A stretch of 64,000 nucleotides of DNA from the NCBI RefSeq assembly GCF_003340495.1, contig NZ_QASA01000001.1:5146001-5210000 (forward strand), read 5' to 3'. Origin of the DNA: Adhaeribacter pallidiroseus. Its GTDB lineage: Bacteria > Bacteroidota > Bacteroidia > Cytophagales > Hymenobacteraceae. Of the stretch, positions 1 through 43,497 are shown piece after piece; position 1 is the first letter of the stretch; each line of letters begins with the position of its first letter. The notes under the pieces are model-generated. The model was given only the letters and a program-made list of their open reading frames with translations, was not told the DNA's origin and did not search any database. Made by a program: the position numbers and the translations under genes.

Positions 1-826
1 CGTGCAAGTGCCCGGTATACGAAAAACGGAGCCCATCGTACACGCCTTTCCAGATCGTAGAAAAATGCGTTTCGTCGGGGTACTGGGCCACTTGCCAGAG
101 TAAACCGGCGGGTGCTTTTTGCTGCAAAACGGAATCCAGAGCCGCCACTCCCATATCGTGGTAATCTCTGCCATCGCGCACGGAGAGCCAGAGTGTGTTG
201 TTAATCCCCGCCATAGTGGGTAATTTTTGCGCGGCCATTTTGTTCACGTAGCCGTTGTCCCACCATAAACTAGGCTCCACGGTTAAGTAAGATTTAAAAA
301 GCGTGGGCTCCTGTAAAAAGGCATAGACCGTAAATAGGCCGCCCAGCGAGGTACCGTACAGGGTATTGTTTTCTTTTTTGGTAGGATACTTCTGGTTGAT
401 GTACGGAATTAACTCATTTTTAAAAAAAGCCAGAAAATTGGCGGCTCCCCCGGAAACCGAACCATCTTTCACCGCGGAAGGCGTAAAATCCCGGTCGCGC
501 AGGTTTAAATCTTTCTGGTATAAATTAGGTACGCTCACCAGAATCATATTAGACGGAATGTAGCGGGCATACTCCATAAAGCCGTAGAGTTGAATGGCTA
601 GGTTGGTGTTCCATTCGCCGTCTAAGATGTACAGTACATCGTACTTATTAGTGTTGCCTGCTTTATAATTCTGAGGCAAAATAACTCCCATCTTTCTGGT
701 TTCTTTTAAAATGGCCGAATACAGCGAATCCGGTAACGTGTTTACCTTTTGCGCCTTTATTGGGCCAACGAGCAGAAAACCGATAAGAAAACCGGCAATG
801 AAAAAAGAAATTTTTAAATTTTTCAA
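1..826 (-). CDS. alpha/beta-hydrolase, putative esterase (3' end beyond window)
   Basis: The minus-strand frame is open from about 826 to the window edge, so the C-terminus is missing. The translation begins with a hydrophobic signal-like segment (FFIAGFLIGFLLVGPIKAQ) and continues with an esterase-D/enterochelin-esterase fold pattern (PF00756). YILDGEWN is followed by nucleophile motif GTSLGG with Ser near residue 160, and by a late Asp-His region (YPDETHFSTIW) carrying the likely catalytic His. No ATG is available: an in-frame stop lies at 860-862 and the only plausible start is TTG at 826. It follows the FtsX permease by 37 bases on the same strand, so it is probably co-transcribed and shares that promoter. 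A secreted esterase acting in the periplasm is inferred; the substrate is unknown. Confidence 0.8.
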   Translation of the reverse strand, partial: MKNLKISFFIAGFLIGFLLVGPIKAQKVNTLPDSLYSAILKETRKMGVILPQNYKAGNTNKYDVLYILDGEWNTNLAIQLYGFMEYARYIPSNMILVSVPNLYQKDLNLRDRDFTPSAVKDGSVSGGAANFLAFFKNELIPYINQKYPTKKENNTLYGTSLGGLFTVYAFLQEPTLFKSYLTVEPSLWWDNGYVNKMAAQKLPTMAGINNTLWLSVRDGRDYHDMGVAALDSVLQQKAPAGLLWQVAQYPDETHFSTIWKGVYDGLRFSYTGHLH

Positions 827-36689: not shown

Positions 36690-38027
36690 TCAGGAGGCAG
36701 CATCCAGGAGGGAGTTGTGTTTGGTATCGCGCATGGTGAGGTATACCAACAGGGAAATAAAGATACAACCCGTAACGTACCAGTAAAAATAGCTTTCGTT
36801 ACCGGCATTTTTAAAACGAAGCGCCACGTACTCGGCGGTTCCGCCAAAAAGAGCCACCGTTACGGAATACGGAAAACCTACGCCCAAGGCCCGGATTTCA
36901 GTCGGGAACAACTCCGCTTTCACCACCGCATTGATGGACGTATACCCGCTAACAATCAGCAGAGCCAGCATAATCAGCCCGAAAGCTTGCCATTGGCTGG
37001 TAGTCTGGCTTAAAGTGGTAAGCAAAGGCACGGTGGCCAAAGTACCGAACAGCCCAAACCCAATCAGTAAAGGCTTACGGCCAATATGGTCGGAGAGTAA
37101 ACCAAAAAGCGGCTGCAGGGCCGCATAAATCAACAGCGATACAAACGTTATTTGCGTAGACTGGCTTTTGCTGAGGTGTACGGTATTTACCAGAAATTTT
37201 TGCATGTAGGTGCTGTAGGTGTAAAAAGCAATGGTACCGCCCAGGGTGAGGCCAACCACTATCGCTACGGCTTTGGGGTGCTGCAAGAGTTGCTTAATGG
37301 TGCCGTTCTTTTTCAGTACAGCCGTACCTTTTTCCGGGTTAAAAGCCACTGATTCCGGCATGTGGCTGCGCAGATACAGCGCCGTTAACGATAAACCGGC
37401 GCCCATCACAAACGGGATGCGCCAACCCCAGGCATGCAATTGGGCTTCGGTTAAAAAGAACTGCTGCAAAAGTAACTGAATGCCCAAAGCAATCAACTGC
37501 CCGCCAATTAGGGTAACGTACTGAAAGCTGGAATAAAAACCCCGCCGCTTAGTTGTAGCCATTTCGCTTAAATAGGTAGCCGAAGTCCCGTACTCGCCAC
37601 CTACGCTTAAACCTTGCAGCAAACGGGCAAATAAAAGCAAAACAGCCGCTAGCACCCCAATAGCCTCGTAAGCAGGCGTAACTGCAATCAGCAAAGACCC
37701 AAACGACATCAGCAGCACCGAAAGCGTCATGGCAAACTTGCGCCCCGCTCGGTCGGCCAGGCGGCCAAACAACCATCCGCCAATGGGACGCATGAGAAAG
37801 CCTACCGCAAAAATACCCGCTGTATTTAAAAGCTGGGCCGTGGCACTGCTCTTGGGGAAAAACACTGGCGCAAAATAAATGGAAAAAGCCGAGTACGCGT
37901 ACCAATCGTACCACTCCACCAAATTGCCCATCGAACCGCTGATGATGGCTTTCAGGCGGTTGGGTTGATAAGCGGGGGCCTCGGTGGAACCCGTAATTGC
38001 TGCTGCTGAATTGCTCCGTATAGCCAT
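36690..38027 (-). CDS. MFS transporter, metabolite:H+ symporter (KgtP/ProP-like)
   Basis: A 445-residue, 12-helix transporter. MHS-family hallmarks are present: NLVEWYDWYAYSAFSIYFAPVFF near residue 36, the loop 2-3 motif GGWLFGRLADRAGRKFAM, and LLQGLSVGGEYGTSATYLSE, which closely matches alpha-ketoglutarate permeases. A second GLLSDHIGRKPLL repeat lies in the C-half. It probably imports a dicarboxylate or related acid by proton symport; the exact substrate cannot be told. It is unlinked to the adaptor unit, having its own upstream spacer. Confidence 0.88.
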   Translation of the reverse strand: MAIRSNSAAAITGSTEAPAYQPNRLKAIISGSMGNLVEWYDWYAYSAFSIYFAPVFFPKSSATAQLLNTAGIFAVGFLMRPIGGWLFGRLADRAGRKFAMTLSVLLMSFGSLLIAVTPAYEAIGVLAAVLLLFARLLQGLSVGGEYGTSATYLSEMATTKRRGFYSSFQYVTLIGGQLIALGIQLLLQQFFLTEAQLHAWGWRIPFVMGAGLSLTALYLRSHMPESVAFNPEKGTAVLKKNGTIKQLLQHPKAVAIVVGLTLGGTIAFYTYSTYMQKFLVNTVHLSKSQSTQITFVSLLIYAALQPLFGLLSDHIGRKPLLIGFGLFGTLATVPLLTTLSQTTSQWQAFGLIMLALLIVSGYTSINAVVKAELFPTEIRALGVGFPYSVTVALFGGTAEYVALRFKNAGNESYFYWYVTGCIFISLLVYLTMRDTKHNSLLDAAS

Positions 38028-38500
38028 AGAACCCGTTTGTCGCTGAAATAAAGAAATGTGATACTACTCAAGTAAAACTAATTATTTTAATTTAGCAACA
38101 GCTTCCTTTAGTGGCCGGATTATCTGTACATAGCCAGATCGTAGCTTTAAATGCGATTATCTTAAATTTTCATTATTTGTAACAAAGCAAATACTGCCAA
38201 TTACCTCTTAAGCCATTATTTGTGTACCTACGCCTATACCTTATAAATACCAGCATAGAACCTGGCTCGCTTTATTTATCTCCCGCAGTTATCCTTAACC
38301 CAGAAACATCTGCTTAAATAACTTGTGTAGAAATCGGGCGAATTGCAGCCGCTGAAAAGCATAATTTAGTATTAACTTAAACCAAGGCGATGCACCTTCG
38401 ACAGAATTATACGTTTTCTTATAATCTCCCCGGAATGTTAGTGATTCTTACTACATTGAATAACCCCGTGGAGGTTTCGTAATTTATAAATTAAAAATCT
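38028..38500. other. divergent intergenic stretch
   Basis: About 470 AT-rich bases between the divergent MFS and membrane-protein genes. No gene, RNA or convincing promoter pair is seen. Confidence 0.35.
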
Positions 38501-39016
38501 ATGTATAAACTAATCGGGAAAGTTCTCGCTGTTGGGTATTCGTTCATTATTTTTCTGCTGATCTGCTGCGCCTTTAGTTTAATTTTCTTCGGCGTAACCG
38601 AGTTGTGGCAGGGCATTCACCCCAACGCTACTATAGACCTGCGAACCCGGTTCAATTCTATTCTGGAAAGCATTGGCTTATTAACTATTGCCGTAGTAGC
38701 CCTCGAACTCGGGCAAACCATCTTGGAAGAAGAAGTACGGCGCGAGGCGCACGTGAGCGCTCCCACCCGGGTCCGGCGATTTCTATCCCGGTTCTTAGTA
38801 GTCATCATTGTGGCCCTCTCTATTGAGTGCTTAATTACTATTTTTAAACTGGCCTATAAAAATCCGGAACAGTTGCCGCAAGCCGCTTCTATCGGCATTG
38901 CCGCGGGTGTGCTGCTGGTGGCTTGGGGCGTGTTTATTAAATTAAATAAGAGCGCCGAAGAAATAGAACCGGAAGCCATGGAGAAGACCAAGCAGGAAGA
39001 TAAAAAGTTGGAGTGA
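38501..39016 (+). CDS. four-helix inner-membrane protein of unknown function
   Basis: A 171-residue protein with hydrophobic helices near residues 7-33 (YSFIIFLLICCAFSLIFFGV), 53-72, 93-113 (LVVIIVALSIECLITIFKL) and 126-146 (AASIGIAAGVLLVAWGVFI), and a charged Glu/Lys cytoplasmic tail. The E-L-G-Q-T-I segment between helices (LELGQTILEEEVRREAHVSAP) looks conserved, but I do not recognise the family with confidence. It stands alone. Confidence 0.7.
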   Translation: MYKLIGKVLAVGYSFIIFLLICCAFSLIFFGVTELWQGIHPNATIDLRTRFNSILESIGLLTIAVVALELGQTILEEEVRREAHVSAPTRVRRFLSRFLVVIIVALSIECLITIFKLAYKNPEQLPQAASIGIAAGVLLVAWGVFIKLNKSAEEIEPEAMEKTKQEDKKLE

Positions 39017-39066
39017 GAAATTAGACTGCTTTATTTTTCTGCCTGGTTTATGAATGGTGTAAACCC

Positions 39067-39248
39067 GTTTGTGAAGACACAAACGCGGGCGTAGAAATTT
39101 GTTGCTGTATTAATCCCTACCTTAACAATAAAAATTTTGTTAAAAAATTTGACAATAAAAATTTTGTCAAATTTGGAATTTTAATAAACCTGTTAATGGC
39201 ATCATAAACGATTTTAGCACCCCTGCCCGTGTTTGTGTCTTCACAAAC
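39067..39248. repeat. REPIN-like element (two inverted REP hairpins)
   Basis: A 24-base sequence at 39067-39090 recurs inverted at 39225-39248 with 23 of 24 matches. Each copy contains its own hairpin (GTTTGTG, loop AAGA, CACAAAC) followed by a G-rich tail GCGGGC or ACGGGC, the form of a REP unit. Between them lie AT-rich repeats of ATAAAAATTTTGT. Two REPs in inverted orientation make a REPIN. A RAYT-type transposase remnant starts 43 bases to the right. Confidence 0.75.
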
Positions 39249-39290
39249 ACTTTCTTCATTCTATCGTTACTTCCAAGCTAGGAGCTGGGG

Positions 39291-39458
39291 AAAATCTATT
39301 TTTACACCGCCACTATTCTACACTGGAAAACTCTACTTAAACCAGATAAATACAAAGAAGTCATTCTAAACTTCTTGCGGTTTCTGGCAGCAGAAAAGAA
39401 GATAATAGTATACGGATTTGTTATTATGCTTAACCACCTGCATCTTATATGGGAGCTT
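39291..39458 (+). pseudogene. REP-associated tyrosine transposase (RAYT / Y1_Tnp) 5' remnant
   Basis: The plus frame from 39291 reads KIYFYTATILHWKTLLKP, then YKEVILNFLRFLAAEKK, then YGFVIMLNHLHLIWELTQ. This is the N-terminal third of a Y1/IS200-like transposase, with the HUH pair His-x-His kept in LNHLHLIW. There is no good start codon, and the sequence turns to non-homologous DNA after about 39458, before the catalytic Tyr. It is a fragment and cannot be active. RAYT proteins mobilise REP/REPIN repeats such as the one just upstream. Confidence 0.75.
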
Positions 39459-39501
39459 ACGCAAATTGTAAGTGTCCGCGGAGCGAAATGTAATAAAATC
39501 A

Positions 39502-39528
39502 AAAAGGGAGCTTTCTTAGCTCCCTTTT
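39502..39528. terminator. hairpin terminator of the Ntn hydrolase unit
   Basis: Eleven-base arms AAAAGGGAGCT and AGCTCCCTTTT around a five-base loop, ending 20 bases past the stop of the 59-residue gene on the minus strand, with T-rich sequence following. Its A/T flanks would let it work in both directions. Confidence 0.75.
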
Positions 39529-39547
39529 GTATATTTAACCACTAATG

Positions 39548-39727
39548 TTATTTAGCACTTTCAAGTATCTTCTTTACTTCAGTCGAAAGAATTTTTTGAA
39601 TATCCTTTACAGTTGAGTGTTCAGTAATCTTATCATTAGAACGAACAGAAGAAGCAACAAAATGGCCTTTTGTAGCTTTACCACTATCCCTTTTAGAATA
39701 AGTACCAACCATTTTTAATGTTTCCAT
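39548..39727 (-). CDS. 59-residue basic protein, partner of the Ntn hydrolase
   Basis: A small gene from ATG 39727 (METLKMVGTYSK) or from the second ATG at 39712. The product is Lys/Ser-rich with a predicted C-terminal helix (KDIQKILSTEVKKILES) and a polar N-terminal half (RDSGKATKGHFVASSVRSND). It starts 16 bases after the Ntn hydrolase stop on the same strand, shares its AT-rich composition and is followed by the hairpin at 39502-39528, so both form one unit. I do not recognise the family. It may be a substrate, activator or inhibitor of the hydrolase; this is a guess from position only. Confidence 0.65.
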   Translation of the reverse strand: METLKMVGTYSKRDSGKATKGHFVASSVRSNDKITEHSTVKDIQKILSTEVKKILESAK

Positions 39728-39743
39728 TGCTTTATAATTAATT

Positions 39744-41039
39744 TTATGTATTCCTTTGATTAAATACGCTAGCTAAATAATTAAGGTTCATTTCAGGTTT
39801 AAAGTAATGTTTACGCTTAATCCATACGAAACCATCCCCTTTGGTTATTACTGCAACATCTACAGGACCACCTACAGATTCTTCCTCAAAGCTAACCCTT
39901 CTTTTTAAATAAGTCAAATCTATCAAAGATTCTGCCATCTCAGTTAAATCTTCTTTAGATAAAGTACCTATTGTTCTCAATATAGGAAACAAATTTCTTT
40001 CGTTACAAACCTCGTCAACAATTTTTTTAAATTTATCTATAAGAGCAGGTGTTGTATTAAGTATAGCCTTTATGGCATTACTATCTGTATTTGTAGGAAT
40101 AGCATTTTCAATATCTACATTATAAATATCTAGAATAGTTTTAAACCCGGCAGTTATATTATTTATAATAAATGGATCTATACCTTTTAAAAAAGTTGAA
40201 ATTATGTCAACTTGTGCAAATGGAGTTATAGCTCCGGTATTTTGAGTACTTATAATAACATCTTCCGACAGTTTATACCTAATCCGATGATCTATAATAC
40301 CTCCAATTATATATGACCTTAATTTAGGAAACACATCATCTTCTCCAAACCCGGTAATAATAATACCAGAATATGGATTGTCAAATATATCTTTGACAAT
40401 ATTTAAATAGATAAATTCTTTAAATGCTATAAGAGAGGTTTCTGCAAGACTTAGGTTTACACTACTATATAAATTATTAATATAAGTAACAATATTAACT
40501 TCATAAGCAGCTAAAAACATTTCTTGTGTATAATCAATAAACTCAATTAGAGTATTAGTATTATTAATACTCTGAATATTCCGCTGAATTATATTAACTA
40601 AAATATTATTAAACTCCTGGTTTACATCAATTTGGCTTTTATCAGGGAAAGTATCTTCAAATTCAGTGCTTGCTACTTCATGTATACTTTTAACTACATT
40701 AAAAATAGTTGTATTTAAATATAATTCTACATCGTAAGTATTAACTCTTAACTTGATTTTATTTAAATAAGTAATAAAGTCATTCGCATATTCAAAGAGA
40801 TTAGGAAAATTCCGTGTTCCTAATTCTTTCTTATACATTTTTATGATTGTTTCCCATGGTATACCCATGAATTCGGCAGAATTATATATACTTATACCAA
40901 CTGGGTAATTGGAAGCAAGATTGAATATTTTATTTGCATTATTGTAGACTTTATTTACTTCTCCACCACTCACTGTTGAGGCACTATCAGCAGCAAGAGC
41001 AACAGCAGACTTATTCAAAACACCGATTATTGCAGTCAT
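39744..41039 (-). CDS. proteasome-beta-like Ntn hydrolase with a long helical insertion
   Basis: A 431-residue protein. The N-terminus MTAIIGVLNKSAVALAADSA matches proteasome/HslV beta subunits: after Met removal it would begin with Thr, with Asp 17 residues in (AADS) and a Lys in NKIFNL at position 36 (33 in the 20S subunit). A Gly-rich strand near residue 225 (GIIITGFGEDD, then YIIGGIID) resembles a later core strand. Residues about 60-220 are Ile/Asn-rich and probably helical, unlike known 200-240-residue HslV or Anbu proteins. There is no signal peptide. Codon usage is strikingly AT-rich beside its GC-richer neighbours, which suggests acquisition. I infer a self-activated peptidase; no known family name is assigned. 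Confidence 0.65.
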   Translation of the reverse strand: MTAIIGVLNKSAVALAADSASTVSGGEVNKVYNNANKIFNLASNYPVGISIYNSAEFMGIPWETIIKMYKKELGTRNFPNLFEYANDFITYLNKIKLRVNTYDVELYLNTTIFNVVKSIHEVASTEFEDTFPDKSQIDVNQEFNNILVNIIQRNIQSINNTNTLIEFIDYTQEMFLAAYEVNIVTYINNLYSSVNLSLAETSLIAFKEFIYLNIVKDIFDNPYSGIIITGFGEDDVFPKLRSYIIGGIIDHRIRYKLSEDVIISTQNTGAITPFAQVDIISTFLKGIDPFIINNITAGFKTILDIYNVDIENAIPTNTDSNAIKAILNTTPALIDKFKKIVDEVCNERNLFPILRTIGTLSKEDLTEMAESLIDLTYLKRRVSFEEESVGGPVDVAVITKGDGFVWIKRKHYFKPEMNLNYLASVFNQRNT

Positions 41040-41176
41040 TATTTTAGTTATTTATAGCAATTAAAGCATTAAAAATTGATAGTCCAATTTCTTATAAACA
41101 AATAATTATATAATTATATATAATCACTCCCTCACCCATACCAAAATCTTTCTAAATACACAATCCCCTTCCTGGC

Positions 41177-41207
41177 TTTGCCTTCCGGTTTTTACGGTGT
41201 AAATTTG
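41177..41207 (+). promoter_or_regulatory. Bacteroidota primary-sigma promoter of tex
   Basis: TTTG at 41177-41180, a 19-base spacer, then TAAATTTG at 41200-41207. This fits the TTTG-N19-TAnnTTTG consensus exactly. The start codon follows 28 bases downstream. Confidence 0.75.
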
Positions 41208-41235
41208 AACGGTATAACCCGAAGCCTAGTGCCGC

Positions 41236-43497
41236 ATGGAAGAACTGATTAGAAATTACCTTAAAATTGCCACCGAGCTGCGTATCAGCATCAAGCAAGT
41301 ACAAGCAACCGTAGAATTATTAGACGAAGGCGCTACCGTGCCTTTTATTTCGCGTTACCGCAAAGAAGTTACCGGCTCTTTAGACGAAGTAGCCGTGGCG
41401 GGCATCCGCGACCGCATGGAACAGCTCCGCGAACTGGATAAACGCCGCGAAGCCATTCTCAAATCCATCCGGGAGCAACAAAAACTAACTCCCGAACTCG
41501 AGGCCCAAATTAACGCCGCCGAAACCATGGCGGTGCTCGAAGATATTTATTTGCCTTACAAACCCAAGCGCCGCACCAAAGCCACCATTGCCCGCGAAAA
41601 AGGTTTGGAGCCATTGGCCCAGCGTTTATTTGAACAAGAGAAATTTGACGTAACCGCCGAAGCCCAGCAATACATCAGCGAAGAAAAAGAAGTAAAAGAC
41701 ACCGAAGAAGCCTTAGCTGGTGCCCGCGATATTATAGCCGAGTGGATTAACGAAAATCCCGATGCTCGGGCCCGCATGCGGAACTTGTTCGAAAAGAAAG
41801 GCATGTTCAAAAGCCGCGTGATGGTGGGCAAGGAAGAAGAAGGCCAGAAATACAAAGATTATTTTGAGTGGGAAGAACCCATCGAGAAAGCCCCTTCGCA
41901 CCGCGTATTGGCTATGCGCCGCGGCGAAAACGAAATGATTTTGATGCTCAACGCGCAACCCGAGGAAGAAGAAGCCATTGAACTGCTCGAAAGCCTATTC
42001 GTGAAAGGCAGTAACGAAGCGGCTCAGCAGGTAAAAATAGCCACCAAAGACGCCTACAAACGCATGCTGAAGCTCTCGATGGAAACCGAAATCCGGATGC
42101 TGTCGAAGAAGCGCGCCGACGAAGAAGCGATTCGGGTATTCGCCGATAATTTACGGCAATTATTACTCTCGGCTCCGCTGGGCCAGAAAACCGTTTTGGC
42201 CCTGGACCCGGGTTTTCGGACGGGTTGTAAGCTGGTGGTACTGGACAAACAAGGCAAATTACTGCACAACGAAAACGTGTATCCGCACACCGGCGCCCGC
42301 CAGGCCCAGGAAGCGGCCAGTACCGTTAAATATTTAGCCTCCAAATACGAAGTAGAAGCTATTGCCATTGGCAACGGCACCGCCAGCCGCGAAACCGAAA
42401 CCTTTGTGCGCGGCTTGGGCTTACCCAATACCATTGCCGTGGTAATGGTAAACGAAAGCGGCGCTTCTATTTACTCGGCCTCGGATGTAGCCCGCGAAGA
42501 ATTTCCGGACCATGATGTTACCGTGCGGGGTGCTGTTTCTATTGGTCGTCGTTTAATGGACCCATTGGCCGAACTGGTAAAACTCGATCCTAAAAGCATT
42601 GGTGTGGGTCAATACCAGCACGACGTCGACCAGTTTGCTTTGAAACATTCTCTGGACGATGTAGTGATGAGTTCGGTAAACGCCGTGGGTGTAGAAGTAA
42701 ATACCGCCAGTAAGCAATTATTAACCTACGTATCGGGCTTAGGTCCGAGCCTGGCGCAAAACATTGTGGAATACCGCAACCAAAACGGCCCGTTCCGTAC
42801 GCGCGCCGAACTGAAAAAAGTACCGCGTTTAGGCGACAAAGCTTTTGAACAAGCCGCCGGTTTCTTGCGCATCCGCCACGCTAAAAACCCGCTGGATGCC
42901 AGCGCCGTGCACCCCGAACGCTACGAACTGGTAGAACGCATGGCGAAAGACTTAGGCACTACCGTCACCGACCTGATGAAAAAGCCGGAGCTGCGCAAGC
43001 AAATAAATTTAAAAAATTACGTAACCGACACGGTTGGTTTGCCTACGCTCCAGGATATTATGAGCGAGCTGGCTAAACCCGGCCGCGACCCGCGCGAAAG
43101 TTTTGAGGCGTTCTCGTTTACCGAAGGCGTAAACGAAATCAATGATTTACGGACCGGCATGAAGTTACCCGGCATTATTACCAACGTAACCGCTTTTGGG
43201 GCCTTCGTGGATATCGGCGTACACCAGGACGGTTTAGTACACGTGAGTCATTTATCCGACCGCTTTGTAAGCAATCCGCACGAAGTGGTGAAAGTGGGTC
43301 AACGGGTAGAAGTTACCGTTTTGGAAGTAGATGCCGCGCGTAAGCGTATTTCCTTGTCCTTAAAAACCGAACCTAGTGCCGCAAAGCCAGCTGGTGGAGC
43401 GGGCTCCGGTAAAAAAGGCGATAAAAATAAACGCGAAGAAGAACCGCAAAACGATTTTGCTGCGAAACTGGCTATGCTGAAAGGAAAGTTTAAGTAA
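41236..43497 (+). CDS. tex: Tex-family S1 RNA-binding transcription accessory protein
   Basis: A 753-residue cytoplasmic protein with the Tex order of domains. The N-terminal helical region has VPFISRYRKEVTGSLDEV. A YqgF/RuvC-like fold starts near residue 320 (VLALDPGFRTGCKLVVLD), then helix-hairpin-helix DNA-binding motifs (ASKQLLTYVSGLGPSLAQNI, and the later PRLGDKAFEQAAGFLRI). A C-terminal S1 domain spans about 645-720 (GIITNVTAFGAFVDIGVHQ, DGLVHVSHLSDRF). A Lys/Gly/Glu-rich tail follows. Tex binds nucleic acids and affects transcription and ribosome-linked processes. It stands alone behind a good promoter. Confidence 0.95.
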   Translation: MEELIRNYLKIATELRISIKQVQATVELLDEGATVPFISRYRKEVTGSLDEVAVAGIRDRMEQLRELDKRREAILKSIREQQKLTPELEAQINAAETMAVLEDIYLPYKPKRRTKATIAREKGLEPLAQRLFEQEKFDVTAEAQQYISEEKEVKDTEEALAGARDIIAEWINENPDARARMRNLFEKKGMFKSRVMVGKEEEGQKYKDYFEWEEPIEKAPSHRVLAMRRGENEMILMLNAQPEEEEAIELLESLFVKGSNEAAQQVKIATKDAYKRMLKLSMETEIRMLSKKRADEEAIRVFADNLRQLLLSAPLGQKTVLALDPGFRTGCKLVVLDKQGKLLHNENVYPHTGARQAQEAASTVKYLASKYEVEAIAIGNGTASRETETFVRGLGLPNTIAVVMVNESGASIYSASDVAREEFPDHDVTVRGAVSIGRRLMDPLAELVKLDPKSIGVGQYQHDVDQFALKHSLDDVVMSSVNAVGVEVNTASKQLLTYVSGLGPSLAQNIVEYRNQNGPFRTRAELKKVPRLGDKAFEQAAGFLRIRHAKNPLDASAVHPERYELVERMAKDLGTTVTDLMKKPELRKQINLKNYVTDTVGLPTLQDIMSELAKPGRDPRESFEAFSFTEGVNEINDLRTGMKLPGIITNVTAFGAFVDIGVHQDGLVHVSHLSDRFVSNPHEVVKVGQRVEVTVLEVDAARKRISLSLKTEPSAAKPAGGAGSGKKGDKNKREEEPQNDFAAKLAMLKGKFK

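What the first reader, a model, noticed from the sequence alone, without database searches (positions are those of the whole stretch)
39744..41039. Proteasome-like Ntn hydrolase with a long insertion in an AT-rich island
The N-terminal Thr, Asp17 and Lys36 after Met removal, plus a later Gly-rich strand pattern, match proteasome beta subunits. However, the protein is 431 residues with a helical insertion of about 150 residues, longer than HslV or Anbu. It lies beside repeat and transposase debris with foreign base composition. It may be an undescribed peptidase family, possibly part of a defence or stress system.
Basis: partly seen in the sequence, partly recalled or inferred. Interest (0 to 1): 0.85.

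Follow-up and report, generated by a model that had tools for sequence, protein, structure and literature searches.

The report
Mobile proteasome-like hydrolase with tiny partner
The gene encodes a proteasome-like enzyme of a family known only from computer surveys, and in nearly every relative examined it is followed by a small fast-changing partner gene, the pair being patchily spread on phages, phage satellites, plasmids and chromosomes, which makes a testable guess at its so far unknown job possible.

Summary
The ORF is real, on the minus strand (39744-41039), 431 aa. It is a proteasome-like Ntn hydrolase: the AlphaFold2 model (pLDDT 93.5) matches 20S beta subunits and Anbu (Z about 17), and Thr/Ser2, Asp18 and Lys37 are kept throughout the relatives aligned. 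There are two helical insertions, not one. The family is probably not undescribed: insertion sites and spread fit PMI-4, one of 22 proteasome homologs listed by Fuchs et al. 2021, who found no informative genomic context; it is also PHROG 5990.

New here: (1) a 35-85 aa ORF starts at the enzyme's stop codon in 118 of 123 usable non-redundant loci (286 of 1055 control ORFs) and is under purifying selection where testable, so this looks like a two-gene module. (2) The pair is cargo of prophages, streptococcal phage satellites and plasmids, and patchy in chromosomes. In the window it is a 1.65-kb AT-rich insert; sister species hold other genes there. (3) In several Rhizobiales and one other MAG it lies beside a ubiquitin-like conjugation operon.

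Most likely it is a partner-controlled, proteasome-derived protease serving conflict between mobile elements and hosts. Fold and gene pair are well supported; defence is inferred. No activity, complex or phenotype was tested.

The parts
39744..41039 (-). Proteasome-like Ntn hydrolase (PMI-4-like, PHROG 5990), 431 aa; Thr2 nucleophile after Met removal, Asp18, Lys37; helical insertions within residues 62-225 and 286-369
39548..39727 (-). Small partner ORF, 59 aa, predicted disordered N-terminus and one C-terminal helix (residues 40-58); starts 16 nt after the main stop
   Evidence: position as in relatives; model; sequence likeness to Bacteroidota partners only modest:
39502..39528 (-). Terminator-like hairpin (11 pairs, T-rich tail) just after the partner's stop; reads on both strands
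   Evidence: 4 found in 39000-41300, shuffles mean 1.1; pattern only
39468..41121 (.). AT-rich insert (28.5% GC) holding the two genes; homology to sister species ends at 39463-39467 (two sisters) on one side and 41121-41131 (three sisters) on the other
39222..39467 (+). Truncated transposase-like gene fragment (name recalled from its motif); a longer ORF with homology to it is present in a sister genome (L192:10982-11503)
   Evidence: no Pfam match
41236..43497 (+). Flanking gene (753 aa; Tex-like S1 RNA-binding protein by recall), divergent from the insert; used to find the same site in relatives
36690..38027 (-). Flanking gene on the other side (MFS-type transporter by recall), syntenic in three sister genomes

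Best explanation
A proteasome-like N-terminal-nucleophile hydrolase of the PMI-4 type forms a two-gene module with a small fast-evolving partner protein. Shown or strongly predicted: the Ntn beta-type fold, the Thr/Ser-Asp-Lys site, no propeptide in the ORF, two helical insertions at positions that line the cavity and the ring-ring interface in the proteasome, a partner ORF conserved in position and (in relatives) under selection, and spread on mobile elements. Inferred: initiator Met is removed by methionine aminopeptidase to free Thr1; the partner's helix and disordered tail bind the enzyme and control it, either as an inhibitor or cork (antitoxin-like) or as an adaptor feeding it targets; a signal from an invading phage or competing element releases the enzyme, which then cleaves a host or phage protein. 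The pair thus acts as a cargo immunity or conflict module of prophages, satellites, plasmids and variable chromosomal sites.
For: Fold: AlphaFold2 pLDDT 93.5, pTM 0.89; Foldseek PDB top hits are 20S subunits (E 2.1e-5), Anbu from rank 24; VIA-align Z 17.2 over 186 residues at 3.3 A to yeast beta5, model range 2..411 on chain range 1..192. PF00227 Proteasome is matched by more members than any other Pfam family, 17 of 111, best E 2.4e-4. Active site: T or S in all 169 rows with a residue at position 2 (164 T, 5 S; one of 170 rows has a gap), D18 and K37 in 170 of 170 (rows partly redundant); D18 and K37 invariant and T2 at least 90% in 111 less redundant rows. Partner: 118 of 123 usable non-redundant loci (ATG only 113) against 286 of 1055 control ORFs (ATG only 143); dN/dS 0-0.31 where dS is defined and above zero. 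Mobility: streptococcal satellites, phages and prophages, plasmids. Patchiness, source genomes left out: none of 199 other genomes of the family, 7 of 394 others in the phylum, two of them by fragments, 9 of 397 other Pseudomonadota; 22 of 5426 E. coli. The same chromosomal site holds other single genes in two sister species, one GIY-YIG-like with weak PADLOC similarity.
Against: No PADLOC, NCBIfam or Pfam model covers the window protein. No defence gene recurs beside the family; defence-like PADLOC matches near chromosomal copies are scattered and have no control. In four Flavobacteriaceae loci the gene sits 18-21 bp after hemB at a stable place, which looks like ordinary inheritance, and the tree clusters by phylum. 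The window's partner is not picked by the profile of Bacteroidota-type partners above shuffled copies, selection on the window's own partner could not be tested for want of a close relative, and the partner groups are not demonstrably homologous to one another (best hhalign probability 10.9). Whether the partner binds, inhibits or feeds the enzyme is untested.
Confidence: 0.42

Rival explanations
1. A general quality-control or stress protease: an uncapped proteasome-like particle that removes damaged or unstructured proteins, with the small protein as assembly chaperone or gate, spread by chance on mobile DNA.
For: Relatives lie in many chromosomes including archaea and stable sites such as downstream of hemB. 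Fuchs et al. raise the possibility of function without specialised accessory factors and recall ATP-independent proteasome roles (PMC8665760, Discussion).
Against: Only about 1-2% of sampled genomes have it once source genomes are left out (7 of 394; 9 of 397) and it is cargo of elements as small as a 10-kb satellite, unusual for quality control.
Confidence: 0.22
2. A specific processing enzyme or protein ligase (connectase-like) whose substrate or carried peptide is the small partner: the Thr1 enzyme cleaves or transfers part of the partner onto target proteins.
For: The window's partner is predicted disordered with one helix and many partners carry an aromatic-(aromatic/Asn)-Pro motif (37 of 122 against a shuffled mean of 5.4, maximum 16), as a recognition motif might look. 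Connectase, a relative, is a ligase (PMC8665760, sections read).
Against: The motif was chosen after seeing the sequences and many of its holders belong to one homologous group (group 1), so the count is not of independent cases; it is absent from the window's own partner and from 85 of 122. I saw no shared C-terminal residue. No helix lies between the early strands where connectase has its insertion.
Confidence: 0.14
3. Part of a bacterial ubiquitin-like pathway: the enzyme degrades or processes proteins tagged by the multiubiquitin/E1/E2/JAB operon.
For: Five of seven Rhizobiales plasmid records (two of them near-identical R. gallicum plasmids) and one Muproteobacteria MAG locus hold a multiubiquitin gene 1.2-1.5 kb away with a ThiF/E1 gene and DUF6527, in two different arrangements; in R. 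gallicum the parts also include E2, JAB and a ClpP-like protease. Multi_ubiq occurs in only 12 of 398 Pseudomonadota genomes.
Against: None of the 10 Pseudomonadota genomes with the enzyme is among the 12 with Multi_ubiq. The other loci, the window included, showed no such neighbour in the DNA held, which is often short. Five of the six loci are Rhizobiales, so few independent events; the L201 copies look frameshifted. Both could simply share a defence island.
Confidence: 0.08
4. A phage-serving factor (for example for lysogeny maintenance, virion assembly or counter-defence) rather than immunity.
For: Found next to head, lysis or immunity genes in several phages.
Against: Positions differ from phage to phage, as for cargo genes, and many copies come from chromosomal contigs with ordinary cellular genes as neighbours.
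Confidence: 0.1

Closest known systems
PMI-4 (Proteasome homolog with Multiple Insertions 4), Fuchs, Alva and Lupas 2021, PMC8665760
   Same: Proteasome-like core with Thr/Ser1, Asp17 and Lys; insertions after H1/H2 and between H3/H4; reported in Proteobacteria, Firmicutes, Actinobacteria, Bacteroidetes, PVC, Cyanobacteria, Euryarchaeota and phages, as found here
   Different: Their sequences and models were not available here, so not aligned. They report no informative genomic context; the small partner ORF, the satellite/prophage cargo positions and the ubiquitin-operon linkage are added here
PHROG 5990 (unknown function)
   Same: Full-length match, E 1.2e-106
   Different: PHROG gives no function
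20S proteasome beta subunit
   Same: Same predicted fold, Z about 17; catalytic residues
   Different: Two helical insertions of about 115 and 70 residues, no propeptide; no alpha subunit or ATPase gene recurred among neighbours
Anbu
   Same: Fold match at the same Z (17.2)
   Different: Solved Anbu chains have about 235 residues; no recurrent multi-gene operon here; no Pfam or NCBIfam hit
Connectase
   Same: A proteasome-like single enzyme with a helical insertion and a specific protein substrate is a possible working model
   Different: Its insertion is between S3 and S4; [quoted passage not shown]
PPH/AAH phage-borne proteasome homologs
   Same: Carried by phages and their hosts
   Different: PPH has only about 140 residues and group I proteins are compact without insertions (as read in PMC8665760)

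Membership tests
Proteasome-like Ntn hydrolases | N-terminal Thr/Ser nucleophile exposed after Met (or propeptide) removal | tested here: met
   T 164, S 5, one gap in 170 rows; processing itself not tested
Proteasome-like Ntn hydrolases | Asp17 and Lys33 equivalents | tested here: met
   D18 and K37 in 170 of 170; invariant in 111 rows
Proteasome-like Ntn hydrolases | Four-layer alpha-beta-beta-alpha fold | tested here: met
   predicted model only
Proteasome-like Ntn hydrolases | Proteolytic activity and ring assembly | not testable with these tools
   needs purified protein
PMI-4 | Long insertion after helices H1/H2 | tested here: met
   helices 101-215 follow helices 62-98 in the model; site as described in PMC8665760
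PMI-4 | Insertion between H3 and H4 | tested here: met
   helical stretch 289-359 between helices 277-285 and 362-382
PMI-4 | Phyletic spread including phages and Euryarchaeota | tested here: met
   against Table 1; PMI-3, the other subfamily with both insertions, is not marked for phages there
PMI-4 | Clusters with the PMI-4 reference sequences | not testable with these tools
   representative HDY66466.1 and the authors' alignments are not held
HslV | Compact subunit without helical insertions | tested here: not met
   431 aa with two insertions; no NCBIfam hit
Anbu | Compact subunit and characteristic Anbu operon (operon recalled) | tested here: not met
   two insertions; no recurrent neighbour family of that kind
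Connectase | Two-helix insertion between S3 and S4 | tested here: not met
   strands 4-9, 12-18, 21-25, 28-32, 38-40 and 47-53 follow one another with no helix before residue 62
Known anti-phage defence system | Matches a PADLOC profile | tested here: not met
   best PADLOC E 0.069 (Csm3)
Known anti-phage defence system | Protects against phage | not testable with these tools
   plaque assay needed
Toxin-antitoxin pair | Small partner neutralises a toxic enzyme | not testable with these tools
   needs expression test

The most novel reading that the evidence does not exclude
A widespread mobile immunity module built from a proteasome subunit: a Thr1 hydrolase held in check or aimed by a dedicated, rapidly evolving 35-85-aa partner, carried by phages, satellites and plasmids against rivals, and in some Proteobacteria working with a ubiquitin-like conjugation operon, that is, a bacterial analogue of ubiquitin-proteasome immunity.
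Probability: 0.2. Interest if true: 0.88.

Novelty: new variant of a known kind. Interest (0 to 1): 0.62.

Why it matters
Fuchs et al. catalogued 22 new proteasome homologs and reported no genomic context that hinted at function; PMI-4 was among the commoner ones (501 sequences at 90% identity, Table 1). A partner gene in the same place in nearly all loci checked, and cargo positions on satellites and prophages, turn an orphan family into a testable two-component system. If it is an immunity module, the proteasome fold joins the bacterial defence arsenal, and the partner offers a natural inhibitor or adaptor. If not, the partner still tells what any function must involve.

Tried and rejected
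Direct sequence search against PDB with the single protein found nothing. The profile search gave proteasome beta only weakly (E 0.005, an 18-residue stretch), below spurious Cullin-3 matches to the helical insert. The window protein's only Pfam hit (MetOD2, E 0.039) and PADLOC hit (Csm3, 0.069) were taken as chance, as were the partner's weak PHROG hits (best E 0.017). In the viral structure library only two entries pass E 0.001, a phage 'proteasome beta type-2 subunit' and a Gordonia phage protein; same fold, not followed.

Second copy in the same genome: a weak match at C1:880838 (E 0.077) was not supported by the family profile and was dropped. Two of the eight Bacteroidota matches are short fragments, and one is the window's own genome; one of the ten is the genome used as centre because it holds the gene, and two (G743, G852) are divergent.

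Partner homology: a profile of 34 Bacteroidota-type partners does not pick the window's partner above shuffled copies. A looser sum of pairwise scores was reached by 3 of 300 shuffles, so membership rests mainly on position. Profile-profile comparison does not join the partner groups (15 pairs of six groups; best probability 10.9, E 0.0028 for that one comparison). A profile of 24 FFPKS-type partners found no convincing solved structure (best E 0.14).

Recurrent neighbours: clustering of 1153 neighbour ORFs from 127 loci found only families that I read as phage genes or lineage synteny (largest in 10 loci; this was a blastp clustering, not a full annotation). PADLOC/Pfam tallies of 254 neighbours of 73 loci show scattered restriction-modification and candidate defence genes; the tool shows only the 25 commonest families, gives no per-protein counts, and I ran no control, so I make no enrichment claim. 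Fusion of partner and enzyme: none noticed among the loci parsed; the long C-terminus of L016 overlaps a partner-like ORF in another frame.

Loci without a partner in the -60..+60 scan: L111, L122, L127, L016, L176, L015, six of 170; L015 ends at the stop codon and L016 has a partner-like ORF starting about 142 nt before its stop. Five of 175 loci were dropped as shorter than 380 aa, apparently interrupted. The dN/dS script was set to stop after 71 pairs; pairs are partly redundant, many had saturated dS, and none involves the window.

Literature: searches; among the titles and abstract beginnings listed (in only the first 20 of the papers found) I saw none on this pair, on phage defence by it, or on PMI-4 beyond PMC8665760. 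Only open-licence PMC papers are held. PMC8665760: abstract, Methods, Results and Discussion read. PMC13022661 and PMC1779556: search passages only. Others: listings.

Full report
WHAT IS THERE. A second minus-strand ORF of 59 aa (39727-39548) starts 16 nt after its stop, and a terminator-like hairpin follows at 39528-39502. The 1.65 kb from 39468 to 41121 has 28.5% GC against 45.1% for the window; the lowest-GC stretches of that length all overlap it.

THE INSERT. The same chromosomal site was read in three sister genomes. In two of them (L191, L192) homology to the window resumes at 41125 and 41121 on the side of the Tex-like gene and at 39463 and 39467 in a transposase-like gene. Between these points they carry different genes: a 261-aa ORF without Pfam family (L191) and a 243-aa ORF with T5orf172/MUG113 (GIY-YIG-type) domains (L192). 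The latter is weakly similar to PADLOC PDC-S57 (E 9e-8). The third (L193) keeps both flanks about 8 kb apart, with other DNA between that I did not read. In the window the transposase-like gene is truncated at the junction. So the two genes with their terminator are a compact insert at a variable spot. The enzyme was found in none of 199 other genomes of the family.

THE ENZYME. No Pfam or NCBIfam model matches at useful significance; PHROG 5990 of unknown function matches end to end (E 1.2e-106). With 111 rows (A2) AlphaFold2 gave pLDDT 93.5 and pTM 0.89. Foldseek ranks 20S proteasome subunits first (E 2.1e-5, probability 1.00), with Anbu from rank 24. VIA-align gives Z 17.2 to yeast beta5 and to Anbu over 186 and 195 residues, model range 2..411 against chain range from residue 1. 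Across 170 parsed loci, the window's own included and some near-duplicates, position 2 is T in 164 and S in 5 with one gap; D18 and K37 are in all 170. In the less redundant A2, D18 and K37 are invariant and T2 is at least 90%. The start of most proteins is Met-Thr, so no propeptide is encoded. PF00227 Proteasome is matched by 17 of 111 members at E up to 0.1, best 2.4e-4, but not by the window protein itself. The helical additions lie between W62 and G225 (144-170 residues, median 161) and between G286 and A369 (57-89, median 85), that is, after H1/H2 and between H3/H4.

IS THE FAMILY KNOWN? Fuchs, Alva and Lupas (PMC8665760; abstract, Methods, Results and Discussion read) described 22 new proteasome homologs. 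PMI-3 and PMI-4 have long insertions at both of these sites; of the two, PMI-4 is the common one (501 sequences at 90%) and the one listed from phages, with a spread like that seen here. I therefore file the protein as probable PMI-4. The reference sequences are not held, so clustering with them was not tested. They write that they found no genomic context suggestive of a specific function.

THE SMALL PARTNER. I took 127 non-redundant loci, the window's included. Of the 123 with enough downstream sequence, 118 have an ORF of 35-85 aa starting within 40 nt of the enzyme's stop (113 with ATG). Among 1055 other ORFs of at least 200 aa in the same loci, 286 do (143 with ATG); the control ORFs were called mechanically and include spurious ones. 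Typical spacing is -4 to +25 (118 of 164) and 59 of 164 overlap the enzyme gene. In close pairs of relatives the small ORF has dN/dS 0 to 0.31 wherever dS is defined and above zero (pairs partly redundant, many with saturated dS, none with the window). In those lineages it is a real, selected gene; for the window this is by analogy. Its sequence falls into groups that I could not join by profile comparison. 37 of 122 partners hold an aromatic-(aromatic/Asn)-x-Pro motif against a shuffled mean of 5.4 and maximum of 16; the motif was picked after looking, many holders are homologous to each other, and the window's partner lacks it. The window's partner resembles the Bacteroidota-type group only modestly: summed score reached by 3 of 300 shuffles, but no profile hit. 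Its model has a disordered first two thirds and one C-terminal helix, residues 40-58 (mean pLDDT 68.1, helix blocks 84-89).

WHERE THE PAIR LIVES. Relatives: 542 of 577 pattern matches in GTDB genomes, best 80 kept; 175 of 262 in viral contigs, best 80 kept; 13 phage records, seven of them streptococcal satellites; 10 plasmid records. The best-80 cut favours relatives near the query. Positions in mobile DNA: at or near the right end of streptococcal phage satellites, with a small gene annotated right after it in two of the three records read (in one search none is annotated); after the lysis genes of a streptococcal prophage; between a DNA adenine methylase and the holin of a Providencia phage; beside holin and lysozyme of a Stenotrophomonas phage; amid head and neck genes of a Porphyromonas phage; in E. 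coli, in a prophage between an HTH gene and recE and next to antiterminator Q in another. Three E. coli searches each match 22 of 5426 genomes, mostly by short pieces; 9 of 5426 match the full gene at 79%; I read two of these loci. In Pseudomonadota, 9 of 397 genomes besides the one used as centre; in the window's phylum, 7 of 394 besides the window's, two of them by fragments. Tenacibaculum and Belliella, of different families, share an 87% identical protein, which suggests transfer, but in the tree labels are also clustered by phylum (21 changes, least possible 16, shuffled mean 34.9), so long-term inheritance matters too. Against a purely mobile view, four Flavobacteriaceae loci hold the gene 18-21 bp after hemB.

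UBIQUITIN-LIKE OPERON. Five of seven Rhizobiales plasmid hits lie 1.2-1.5 kb from a multiubiquitin gene followed or preceded by a ThiF/E1 gene. Two of the five are near-identical R. gallicum plasmids and L201 looks frameshifted. Of the other two, L200 showed none by tblastn and L202 is a fragment without one. In R. gallicum the multiubiquitin protein also bears a Prok-E2 domain and the ThiF protein a JAB domain, with a ClpP-like gene after them; DUF6527 was confirmed in L197. A related multiubiquitin-ThiF-DUF6527 set, on the other side of the enzyme as in Mesorhizobium, is found in a Muproteobacteria MAG (L098). Multi_ubiq is rare: 12 of 398 Pseudomonadota genomes, none of them among the 10 with the enzyme. 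The link is thus not general, but is hard to get by chance in two arrangements; sharing of a defence island would explain it as well.

HOW IT MOST LIKELY WORKS. Shown: the gene pair, selection on both in relatives, mobile setting. Predicted with high confidence: fold and active site. Inferred: Met removal frees Thr1; the insertions block or reshape the classical double ring; the partner binds the enzyme and restrains or aims it; and the pair serves conflict with phages or rival elements. I put the whole chain at 0.42. Quality control (0.22), partner-processing or ligation (0.14), a phage-serving role (0.10) and a ubiquitin-coupled pathway (0.08) are the rivals. The recount of patchiness (source genomes left out) did not change these odds.

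JUDGEMENT. The claim of an undescribed family should be lowered to a probable member of PMI-4; the partner and cargo pattern, which I saw in none of the papers listed by my searches (open-licence papers only), are what is new.

Noticed in passing
L016, L196, L197, L201, L203 (Rhizobiales plasmids) and L098 (Muproteobacteria MAG): The enzyme gene lies 1.2-1.5 kb from a multiubiquitin/E1 operon (in R. gallicum with E2, JAB and ClpP-like parts), in two different arrangements.
   Followed up: partly
L191:2501-3286 and L192:12116-12847: Other genes occupy the window's insertion site in two sister species, one a GIY-YIG/T5orf172 protein weakly like PADLOC PDC-S57: a small variable spot next to a transposase-like gene.
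   Followed up: partly
38501-39016 (+): A 171-aa ORF of normal GC (47.7%, membrane-like by eye) lies in a stretch (about 38104-39222) that shrinks to about 145-217 bp in two sister genomes, so it seems a separate gain or loss.
   Followed up: no
39067-39090 / 39225-39248: 24-nt inverted repeat, 96% complementary, beside the truncated transposase-like gene; one arm matches DNA at the end of the transposase-like ORF in two sister genomes.
   Followed up: no
L196:6662-7309 and its counterparts in L197, L201, L203: A divergent cluster of a 205-215-aa protein, a 57-aa protein and an HTH protein between the enzyme and the ubiquitin-like operon; the largest is weakly like PADLOC PD-T4-9_A (E 2.4e-7).
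   Followed up: no
L213, L214, L215 (Pseudomonadota): Divergent relatives (48-122 bits) that may be other PMI subfamilies.
   Followed up: no
L034, L041, L046, L052: In four Flavobacteriaceae loci the enzyme gene follows hemB by 18-21 bp on the same strand, hinting at co-transcription with haem synthesis there.
   Followed up: no
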